Below are positions 60,031 through 62,926 of a stretch of DNA of 64,000 nt, piece by piece; within the stretch, counting starts at the first letter, position 1; each line of letters starts with the position of its first letter. The notes under the pieces were generated by a model. That model ran no database searches and was not told the origin of the DNA. It saw only the letters and a program-made list of their open reading frames with translations. Position numbers and translations under genes: made by a program. This DNA comes from Cytobacillus oceanisediminis 2691 (lineage in GTDB: Bacteria > Bacillota > Bacilli > Bacillales > Cytobacillaceae), in NCBI RefSeq assembly GCF_007678455.1, contig NZ_VEEP01000003.1, positions 263,569 to 327,568 on the forward strand, given 5' to 3'.

Positions 60031-61047
60031 CTAAACTATGCTCTTCCCGCTTTTCCCTAGTGCATAATAGATTCCGTGCTGTAGGGTCTGGAGACATTCG
60101 TATTTTTTCAGGCCTGTGAGTGTTTCGGTGATCACCATTGCCAGTTCGGCGGAAATCCCTACAAGAATGACTTCCACACCTAACAATCTGGCAGCTGAAC
60201 CAAGCTTATCTATCAACTCTGCAGTGTATGGGGATATGTCCTTGTTCAAACCTGTGAGATCAAGTAAAACGTATCTTGTATGATACTTTGGCAGATTATT
60301 CAATGTGTTGTTAATCAAATCCTCTGCACGGTTCTCATCATATCTGCCAATCAATGGAACGACGACTATACCCTCAAGCACTGGAATCATCGGAGAGGAT
60401 AACTCCTTTACCAGATCCTGGAGCAGCTTCGTTTTTTCGGCTACCAGGCTCTCTAATTCCTGGATATGTTTATCTTCTTGTCTACTTGCCAACCTACGTA
60501 TGTTTTGTTGAATACTCATGACAGATGGGAAGTATTCCACAACTGTATATGGATTGGATTCATTTTGGTATTTAATGATCTTATACCAGAAGTTACTTCC
60601 GAATAATCCTGTAAAAACCCCAGCATAATGCGCAGGAACGAAAATACCCTGCTTTTCCTCGGAACCCAATTTGTTCATTTTGTATTCCCAGTCATCTTGA
60701 ATATATAAGGTGAAGTTTTTTGTATTTACATTCATTTCCTCAACACTTACGTATCCCCATCCTGCTGGTACATATGTATTTGACAGCCATTCCACAACAT
60801 TGGATGTATTGATTTCCTTCATTTCCTTGAATCCTTCACCAACGATGATGCCCTGTCGGAAACCAGTGGCCTCTAGTACAAGGTTTGTTGCTTCTTCACC
60901 TGTAATTTCATTGATTGTGTCAAAGAACGTTTTCATTGCAGACACCCAGAAAAAAACGACGTCCCCACCCTCGAACAATACTTGACCTGAGTTTAAGTCC
61001 CATTTAAGTTCTACGCCGCCGACAATAAGATCCTTTTGCATCTCCAT
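60031..61047 (-). CDS. STAS-domain regulator, paralogue of 6222-7241
   Basis: 338 residues with the same build as the product of 6222-7241: N-terminal sensory domain (ATGFRQGIIV, AGWGYVSVEEMN, FVPAHYAGVFTGLF), a short coiled coil (about 195-215) and a STAS domain with ELSSPMIPV and VLLDLTGL. Predicted RsbR-like stressosome component. RBS GAGGG six bases before ATG 61047. Its partners are not in this window. Confidence 0.85.
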   Translation of the reverse strand: MEMQKDLIVGGVELKWDLNSGQVLFEGGDVVFFWVSAMKTFFDTINEITGEEATNLVLEATGFRQGIIVGEGFKEMKEINTSNVVEWLSNTYVPAGWGYVSVEEMNVNTKNFTLYIQDDWEYKMNKLGSEEKQGIFVPAHYAGVFTGLFGSNFWYKIIKYQNESNPYTVVEYFPSVMSIQQNIRRLASRQEDKHIQELESLVAEKTKLLQDLVKELSSPMIPVLEGIVVVPLIGRYDENRAEDLINNTLNNLPKYHTRYVLLDLTGLNKDISPYTAELIDKLGSAARLLGVEVILVGISAELAMVITETLTGLKKYECLQTLQHGIYYALGKSGKSIV

Positions 61048-62370: not shown

Positions 62371-62400
62371 AAAAAAAAAGAGGCCGAAGCCCCTTTTTGT
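62371..62400 (-). terminator. Terminator of the glutaredoxin-like gene
   Basis: AAAAGGGGC, TTCG and GCCTCTTTT followed by TTTTT on the minus strand. Confidence 0.8.
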
Positions 62401-62410
62401 TGTTTAAAAC

Positions 62411-62644
62411 TTATTTATTCACATACTGCATGAGCGTATCCGGGTCAAAACCAAGAACCCAGTAGCCATTCACTTTCGTTTGCGGCACACCCATCTGCCC
62501 AGTTTCTTCAACCAGCTTCTGTGCAGCTTGTTGATCGTATTGTACATTAACTTCTTTGTAGTTTAATCCTTGACCCTCAAGGAATTGTTTCATCATTGTG
62601 CAGTAAGGTCAAGTGTTTGTTGTGTAAACTGTAATATCATTCAT
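62411..62644 (-). CDS. Glutaredoxin-like protein with in-frame TGA (candidate selenoprotein)
   Basis: ATG 62644 has AGGAGG eight bases upstream. The frame reads MNDITVYTTNT, then TGA (62609-62611), then PYCTMMKQFLEGQGLNYKEV and a normal glutaredoxin/NrdH-type remainder (QMGVPQTKVNGYWVLGFDPD), total 77 residues. The TGA occupies the first Cys of the CPYC active site. ATG 62596 and 62593, after the TGA, have no RBS and would give a protein lacking the active site. Recoding as selenocysteine is the best explanation; a Cys-to-stop mutation is the alternative. UGACCUU after the codon start can pair with AGGGUCA 28 bases later. Confidence 0.72.
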
Positions 62645-62926
62645 TTCAAATGCCTCCTTAAAGTTTGTTATACCCTATAATGTATTATCCCGGTTATGCT
62701 AAATTTTTGCAAAAAAGATGCACCGGGATACCATTGTTTTTCCCTATTTCCACGAAAAAAAACAGGATGGGAGGTATCGTTTACATCACGGCAAGAACGA
62801 TGCTGAGCGAGGCAAAAACAATAATATTGTGAGAAAAACCTGATTTTCCCCTGCATCCCTAATTGTATTATATTAAGAGCCATCAGATAGGCCTGATCTT
62901 AAAATGCCAGGGATAAGATTCGTTTA
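62645..62926. other. Intergenic stretch
   Basis: Frames on both strands here are short, lack RBS sites and carry no recognisable content; I call no gene. Confidence 0.45.

What the first reader, a model, noticed from the sequence alone, without database searches (positions are those of the whole stretch)
62411..62644. Glutaredoxin-like gene with TGA at the first active-site Cys: candidate selenoprotein
Seen: an ideal RBS and ATG open a frame in which TGA replaces the first Cys of CPYC, giving TUPYC, and the family sequence continues without any other defect to the natural stop and terminator. Known: selenocysteine in bacteria is inserted at UGA, often replacing a catalytic Cys, and selenoglutaredoxins with UPYC occur in some Clostridia-related species. 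Inferred: the gene is a selenoprotein. The UGA sits at the base of a possible 7-pair stem with a 27-base top, the size of a bacterial SECIS, but the fit is only moderate. A routine gene caller would report just the truncated 61-residue frame.
Basis: partly seen in the sequence, partly recalled or inferred. Interest (0 to 1): 0.87.

Follow-up and report, generated by a model that had tools for sequence, protein, structure and literature searches.

The report
Selenocysteine glutaredoxin gene in Mesobacillus
A small redox-protein gene in a Bacillus relative appears to read a stop codon as the rare amino acid selenocysteine at its active site, which ordinary gene finders miss; the kind of protein is known, but this group carries an unusually clear, conserved RNA signal for it.

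Summary
On the minus strand, 62644-62411 encodes a 77-residue glutaredoxin-fold protein with TGA (62611-62609) at the first active-site Cys (TUPYC). The sequence tests run here support a selenoprotein gene. The host genome (Mesobacillus) has selA, selB, selD, tRNA-Sec and other genes with in-frame TGA. The TGA form is in 20 of 21 genus genomes (the miss is 66% complete) and 40 of 193 family genomes, all 40 with SelA. Codons on both sides of the TGA are under purifying selection. All 43 distinct TGA genes extracted keep a 7-pair hairpin whose loop starts 32 nt after the UGA and whose codons are nearly frozen at synonymous sites; Cys homologues vary freely there. It fits the published bacterial SECIS model in loop, stem and spacing; its energy is borderline. 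A Cys paralogue sits in the same genomes; four Cys genes nested in the Sec group look like reversions, two with relic stems. New member of a known kind; selenium incorporation is untested.

The parts
62411..62644 (-). CDS of selenocysteine glutaredoxin-like protein, 77 aa with Sec at residue 12 (MNDITVYTTNTUPYC...), stop TAA
   Evidence: Pfam Glutaredoxin 65.2 bits over cut-off 22.9 (scored with C for U)
62609..62611 (-). in-frame TGA (Sec codon) at the first active-site Cys position
   Evidence: TGA form in 20 of 21 genus genomes
62567..62583 (-). conserved 7-bp hairpin UCCUUGA-GGG-UCAAGGA, candidate bacterial SECIS; loop begins 32 nt after the UGA
   Evidence: 7 of 7 pairs in 43 of 43 distinct TGA genes and in 2 of 57 distinct Cys genes
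62653..62659 (-). Shine-Dalgarno AAGGAGG
   Evidence: GGAGG within 20 nt upstream in 41 of 43 distinct TGA genes
62375..62398 (-). intrinsic-terminator-like stem-loop with T tail, just after the stop codon
   Evidence: 10 pairs, loop 4
   Evidence: 7 pairs complete in 20 of 43, 9 pairs in 19 of 43

Best explanation
The gene is a selenoprotein gene. Ribosomes start at the ATG at 62644 and reach UGA codon 12. SelB, bound to the hairpin 32 nt downstream, delivers Sec-tRNA-Sec, so that the UGA is read as selenocysteine. The product is a YruB/NrdH-like member of the glutaredoxin fold with a U-P-Y-C active site: Sec12 attacks the substrate disulphide and Cys15 resolves it. It arose by duplication of a Cys (CPYC) redoxin that is still in the genome, followed by Cys-to-Sec replacement. 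Shown here: the frame, the conserved TGA, the machinery genes, RNA-level constraint, protein-level constraint on both sides, the paralogue. Inferred: actual Sec insertion, SelB binding, the reaction, the electron donor (glutathione should not be assumed: from recall, Bacillaceae mostly use bacillithiol or thioredoxin reductase), the order of duplication and replacement, and any division of labour with the Cys paralogue.
For: Machinery in the same genome: two tRNA genes called tRNA-Sec with TCA anticodon by ARAGORN and over the Rfam tRNA-Sec cut-off (that cut-off is also passed in 5 of 14 control genomes, so the anticodon is what counts); SelB 361.7 bits over cut-off 242.25 (controls over cut-off 2 of 14); SelA 568.4 over 267.9 (1 of 14); SelD 397.3 over 125, with one in-frame TGA (2 of 14); two formate-dehydrogenase-type genes with in-frame TGA. 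Conservation: TGA form in 20 of 21 genus genomes and 40 of 193 family genomes, all 40 with SelA, against 132 of the other 153 (Fisher p 0.009, relatedness ignored). Hairpin: 7 of 7 pairs in 43 of 43 distinct TGA genes, G first in the loop (GGG 21, GGC 17, GUC 4, GGA 1), against 7 pairs in 2 of 57 distinct Cys genes; 7 pairs arise in 0.3-3% of synonymous resamplings of four genes; synonymous identity at codons 21-26 is 0.987 in TGA genes (25 representatives) against 0.53 at other codons, and 0.47 against 0.44 in Cys genes (42 representatives). Selection: pN/pS 0.075 before the TGA, 0.137 after, 0.03 for the four codons between the TGA and the first internal ATG (41 of 43 genes). GGAG, AGGA or GAGG within 20 nt before the internal ATG in 0 of 43.
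Against: No experiment. The isolated hairpin is weak: median -6.8 kcal/mol, 1 of 43 at or below the -7.5 of the published model, though 60 nt from the UGA fold to -7.6 in the window. The loose form of that model is not specific: 43 of 57 Cys genes also hold some hairpin of 4 or more pairs with a G early in the loop at the allowed distance, though weak ones (median of all 57 -0.1 kcal/mol). In Mesobacillus the minimum-energy fold of longer RNA is the other stem. The stem pairs hardly vary within the set, so there is no covariation there; the evidence is synonymous constraint. Codons 19 and 20, just before the hairpin, are frozen too. SelA is common in the family (172 of 193), so co-occurrence is a weak test. 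Rfam has nothing over a gathering score here.
Confidence: 0.96

Rival explanations
1. Nonsense mutation or sequencing error in an ordinary Cys glutaredoxin; the gene is dead or mis-assembled.
For: A stop-free homologue exists in the same genome, so loss could be tolerated. One relative (L042, Mesobacillus boroniphilus draft) has a shifted frame near its end, and one (L125/L168) has no alignable start.
Against: The same TGA in 43 distinct sequences, from several genera and from three further families of the order, with low pN/pS on both sides.
Confidence: 0.01
2. The real product is the 61-aa protein from the internal ATG (62596), and the upstream frame is a leader or remnant.
For: Two internal ATG codons follow the UGA closely.
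Against: No Shine-Dalgarno-like motif before the internal ATG in 43 of 43, while GGAGG precedes the upstream ATG in 41 of 43. Codons 2-11 and 13-16 have the lowest pN/pS of the stretches tested. The 61-aa form lacks the UPYC active site.
Confidence: 0.02
3. The UGA is read by another amino acid (near-cognate suppression), without selenium.
For: Some read-through at UGA is general (recalled).
Against: The TGA is at the catalytic Cys, the hairpin is frozen, SelA, SelB and tRNA-Sec are present, and all 40 TGA carriers of the family have SelA. The one genome without SelA seen within the Sec group of the tree (G258) has TGT.
Confidence: 0.01

Closest known systems
Sec-containing glutaredoxin (Grx, PF00462, UxxC)
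   Same: Glutaredoxin fold with Sec at the first active-site position; in the tables of PMC13188914 and PMC9312934 it stands above the 'Predicted' block (passages seen). PMC1794560 lists glutaredoxin among selenoproteins of Geobacter sulfurreducens and Alkaliphilus metalliredigenes (passage seen).
   Different: Different lineage (Bacillaceae), own SECIS sequence, and a stop-free homologue 67-77% identical in the same genomes. The top PDB hit 7c10 (50 bits) is by recall the Clostridium oremlandii Grx1; itself says only 'Glutaredoxin', and of PMC7642778 only the search listing with the start of its abstract was seen.
YruB-family glutaredoxin-like protein (TIGR02196) and NrdH-redoxin (TIGR02194)
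   Same: Best NCBIfam match over nearly the full length, 85 bits; NrdH model 50.6 bits.
   Different: Both below the curated cut-offs (88.55 and 85.75), scored with C for U.
UXX-star selenoproteins (NF041212, NF041114, NF041211)
   Same: Small glutaredoxin-like (seleno)proteins (model names).
   Different: 47.5 bits against a cut-off of 66 for NF041212, 21.9 against 72 and 31 against 100 for the others; the gene here keeps the second Cys (UPYC).

Membership tests
Selenoglutaredoxin | Glutaredoxin domain | tested here: met
   PF00462, 65.2 bits, cut-off 22.9
Selenoglutaredoxin | in-frame TGA at the first Cys of CxxC, with homologues that have Cys there | tested here: met
   CPYC in 56 of 57 distinct Cys homologues
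Selenoglutaredoxin | Sec machinery genes in the same genome (selA, selB, selD, tRNA-Sec) | tested here: met
Selenoglutaredoxin | Sec actually incorporated | not testable with these tools
   needs 75Se or mass spectrometry
Bacterial SECIS (model quoted in PMC13188914) | 3-9 nt apical loop and 4-16 bp upper stem | tested here: met
   3-nt loop and at least 7 bp in 43 of 43
Bacterial SECIS (model quoted in PMC13188914) | G in the first two loop positions | tested here: met
   G first in 43 of 43
Bacterial SECIS (model quoted in PMC13188914) | 16-37 nt between UGA and the apical loop | tested here: met
   32 nt in 43 of 43
Bacterial SECIS (model quoted in PMC13188914) | minimum free energy at or below -7.5 kcal/mol | tested here: inconclusive
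   hairpin alone median -6.8, 1 of 43 passes; 60 nt from the UGA of the window -7.6; the passage read does not say which stretch is meant
UXX-star (NF041212) | score over the curated cut-off | tested here: not met
   47.5 against 66 bits
YruB-family (TIGR02196) | score over the curated cut-off | tested here: not met
   85 against 88.55 bits, scored with C for U
NrdH (TIGR02194) | score over the curated cut-off | tested here: not met
   50.6 against 85.75 bits
Glutathione-dependent glutaredoxin | uses glutathione as reductant | not testable with these tools
   enzyme assay needed

The most novel reading that the evidence does not exclude
The two folds exclude each other and could act as a switch that sets how much UGA is decoded as Sec and how much terminates. 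Alongside, the group shows several apparent Sec-to-Cys reversions in a glutaredoxin, three of four in genomes that keep SelA, against the mostly one-way Cys-to-Sec picture of PMC1794560 (2006).
Probability: 0.07. Interest if true: 0.65.

Novelty: new member of a known kind. Interest (0 to 1): 0.42.

Why it matters
A routine open-reading-frame list gives a 61-aa fragment without the active site. The gene adds a set of Bacillaceae selenoglutaredoxins with many genomes, one frozen SECIS hairpin, a Cys paralogue in the same cell as a built-in control, and nested Cys genes with relic hairpin stems. That makes it a convenient natural experiment for asking why one copy keeps Sec, and when Sec is given up although the machinery stays.

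Tried and rejected
Nonsense mutation or sequencing error: rejected by conservation. Internal start: rejected by selection before the internal ATG and the missing Shine-Dalgarno. Rfam scan of the region: 6 matches, all below their gathering scores. Consensus folding: 29 distinct TGA rows gave the inner hairpin alone, 18 distinct Cys rows nothing. UXX-star, YruB and NrdH models: below cut-off. No structure prediction was run.

Counts and rows left out: the Cys set (57 distinct) is what was fetched, not all Cys hits. Of 145 extracted hits, 100 were distinct; many loci are the same contigs as unnamed-genome loci. L042 and L125 were left out of the selection test and the tree. The divergent UPHC gene L169 and the UTDC genes L170/L171 did not pass the motif filter and are not among the 43. 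The tree is a quick one on 204 columns; 48 of 95 inner branches are weak, starred branches force only one change, and L075 is flagged as a long branch, so its place is unsure. One search kept the best 80 of 108 loci.

Full report
What is there. The minus strand from 62644 to 62411 encodes MNDITVYTTNTUPYCTMMKQFLEGQGLNYKEVNVQYDQQAAQKLVEETGQMGVPQTKVNGYWVLGFDPDTLMQYVNK, with TGA at 62611-62609 and a TAA stop. An AAGGAGG lies 8 nt before the ATG, and a terminator-like stem-loop with a T tail at 62398-62375 follows the stop. A standard open-reading-frame list shows only 61 residues from 62596. The protein, scored with C for U, matches Pfam Glutaredoxin at 65.2 bits over a cut-off of 22.9. Its best NCBIfam model is YruB-family glutaredoxin-like, 85 bits against a cut-off of 88.55.

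Where it is. The genome has 4.9 million bases in 477 contigs. Several contigs of its genus group have the same lengths as named records of Mesobacillus subterraneus, M. boroniphilus and M. selenatarsenatis that hold the same genes, so the window is from a Mesobacillus; the species was not determined.

Machinery. Two tRNA genes on the window's own contig are called tRNA-Sec with anticodon TCA by ARAGORN and pass the Rfam tRNA-Sec cut-off; 5 of 14 control genomes also pass it, so the Rfam score alone is weak. SelB scores 361.7 bits over 242.25, SelA 568.4 over 267.9, SelD 397.3 over 125 with one in-frame TGA; 2, 1 and 2 of the 14 controls pass these cut-offs. SelA and SelD are neighbours on one contig. 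In-frame TGA also occurs in a formate dehydrogenase alpha chain over its cut-off (context NRTUHAPSVAGL), in a second, lower-scoring molybdopterin oxidoreductase (ARIUHSSTVAGL) and in SelD (TKAGUGCKISPEDL). The organism has the complete Sec-decoding gene set.

Conservation of the codon. In the genus, 20 of 21 genomes have a closely similar gene with one TGA; the one without is 66% complete. In the family, 92 of 193 genomes match at E 1e-15 and 40 have the TGA form. SelA is in 172 of 193, including all 40 TGA carriers, against 132 of 153 others (Fisher p 0.009; related genomes are not independent). In a sample of 397 genomes of the order, 90 match at E 1e-24; outside the family three genomes, from three families, have a close TGA form (one of them also with a TAA and no alignable start), and a fourth has a 51% identical form that reads UPHC. 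All four have SelA. A fifth genome, G258, has a TGT gene at 82% identity and no SelA match.

Selection. In 41 of 43 distinct TGA genes, pN/pS is 0.075 for codons 2-11, 0.137 for codons 13-75 and 0.03 for codons 13-16, which lie between the TGA and the first internal ATG. Protein-coding constraint therefore runs through the TGA. No GGAG, AGGA or GAGG lies within 20 nt before the internal ATG in 43 of 43.

The RNA signal. All 43 distinct TGA genes have seven of seven pairs in the hairpin that reads UCCUUGA-GGG-UCAAGGA in the window, with loops GGG (21), GGC (17), GUC (4) and GGA (1), the loop starting 32 nt after the UGA; 2 of 57 distinct Cys genes have seven pairs there. Synonymous resampling of four of these genes gave seven pairs in 56 to 646 of 20,000 trials. 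Among 25 representatives, sequences with the same residue share the same codon in 98.7% of pairs at codons 21-26, against 53% elsewhere; in 42 Cys representatives the values are 47% and 44%. Codons 19 and 20 are equally frozen, so the constrained stretch starts a little before the stem. The review PMC13188914 (passages seen) gives the bacterial SECIS model: loop 3-9 nt, stem 4-16 bp, G in the first two loop positions, 16-37 nt from the UGA, energy at or below -7.5. The first ones are met in 43 of 43. The energy is borderline: -6.8 median for the hairpin alone, 1 of 43 passing, and -7.6 for 60 nt from the UGA in the window. The loose model without the energy is not specific: 43 of 57 Cys genes contain some qualifying hairpin, with a median best energy over all 57 of -0.1. 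What sets the TGA genes apart is the same strong hairpin at the same place in every one. The pairs hardly vary within the set, so this is constraint, not covariation. One outside case helps: the divergent UPHC gene L169 has a different stem, with a GGA loop 32 nt after its UGA by my count on the printed fold.

UGACCUU/AGGGUCA with 27 bases between is in the window sequence as described and is part of the minimum-energy fold there, but it is complete in only 20 of 43 distinct TGA genes. It contains the UGA, so a ribosome decoding that codon would have opened it (inference). It shares its 3' arm with the conserved hairpin, so the two exclude each other.

Origin and loss. In a quick tree of 98 genes without the TGA codon and hairpin columns, 41 Sec and 4 Cys genes form one group (SH-aLRT 95), with five changes at least. 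The simplest reading is one Cys-to-Sec change after duplication and four reversions (L058, L065, L075, L166). Weak inner branches, and the long branch of L075, leave other counts open. L058 (G023, Niallia endozanthoxylica as L103) keeps the whole hairpin with its GGC loop, and L166 keeps the stem but has UUC in the loop, which fits relics. Three of the four Cys genomes (G023, G027, G162) still have SelA; G258 does not. PMC1794560 (abstract and passages seen) found 15 Sec-to-Cys conversions, in four families; its table row for three glutaredoxins shows none in the column that I take, from the totals, to be Sec-to-Cys. These apparent reversions add to that picture.

What it does. By homology it is a dithiol-type redoxin with Sec as attacking residue and Cys15 as resolving residue (inference). 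PMC13188914 (passage seen) says that Sec raises the catalytic efficiency of such oxidoreductases. The electron donor is open; from recall, Bacillaceae generally lack glutathione. The Cys paralogue may serve when selenium is short (inference).

Literature. Selenoglutaredoxins are listed as known in PMC9312934, PMC2398784, PMC13188914 and PMC1088965 (passages). PMC12013277 holds neither 'glutaredoxin' nor 'Bacill' in its main text. Searches for selenoprotein or selenocysteine with Bacillaceae, Bacillales, Mesobacillus, Neobacillus, glutaredoxin and UGA listed no paper whose title or shown abstract is about this Bacillaceae gene; one search listed 20 of 121 papers, and the library holds open-licence papers only. 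This is weak evidence that it is unpublished.

Verdict. The reading as a selenoprotein is supported (0.96). It is a new member of a known kind, with a corrected SECIS and an informative evolutionary setting.

Noticed in passing
L183 = G000:C111:32543-32818 (outside the window); L170, L171 in relatives: A second glutaredoxin-like gene with in-frame TGA (FTRPMUTDC) in the same genome, with its own hairpin after the TGA. Weak hits with one TGA in 14 of 21 genus genomes are probably the same gene; two of them were read (L170, L171).
   Followed up: partly
L172 = G000:C332:393000-408000: The two tRNA-Sec genes (96 of 97 bases alike) lie about 10.6 kb apart and flank, among others, an OLD-type ATPase, a GIY-YIG-like gene and two IS110-like transposases (names by recall on the translations). 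This looks like an island inserted at the tRNA-Sec gene; the copies differ at position 2.
   Followed up: partly
window 60031-61047 and L047, L049, L050, L051, L052: A homologue (about 54% identical) of the window's STAS-domain-like gene (name by recall) lies next to the Cys paralogue in 5 of the 10 genus Cys loci compared, L043-L052, which suggests a segmental duplication behind the two glutaredoxins.
   Followed up: partly
L169 (G224): A divergent glutaredoxin that reads UPHC, with a different 10-pair hairpin, in another family of the order; perhaps an independent change to Sec.
   Followed up: no
L042/L120 (Mesobacillus boroniphilus JCM 21738) and L125/L168 (Salirhabdus sp. Marseille-P4669): Two TGA genes with defects: a shifted frame near the end, and no alignable start. 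Draft error or decay not decided.
   Followed up: no
L086 (record titled Chryseobacterium sp. ISL-80), L117 (record titled Pseudomonas sp. ISL-84): Record titles that do not fit: L086 has the Mesobacillus gene and neighbours at 91-98% identity, L117 a Cytobacillus-like gene (by its twin L081). Probably mislabelled isolates.
   Followed up: no
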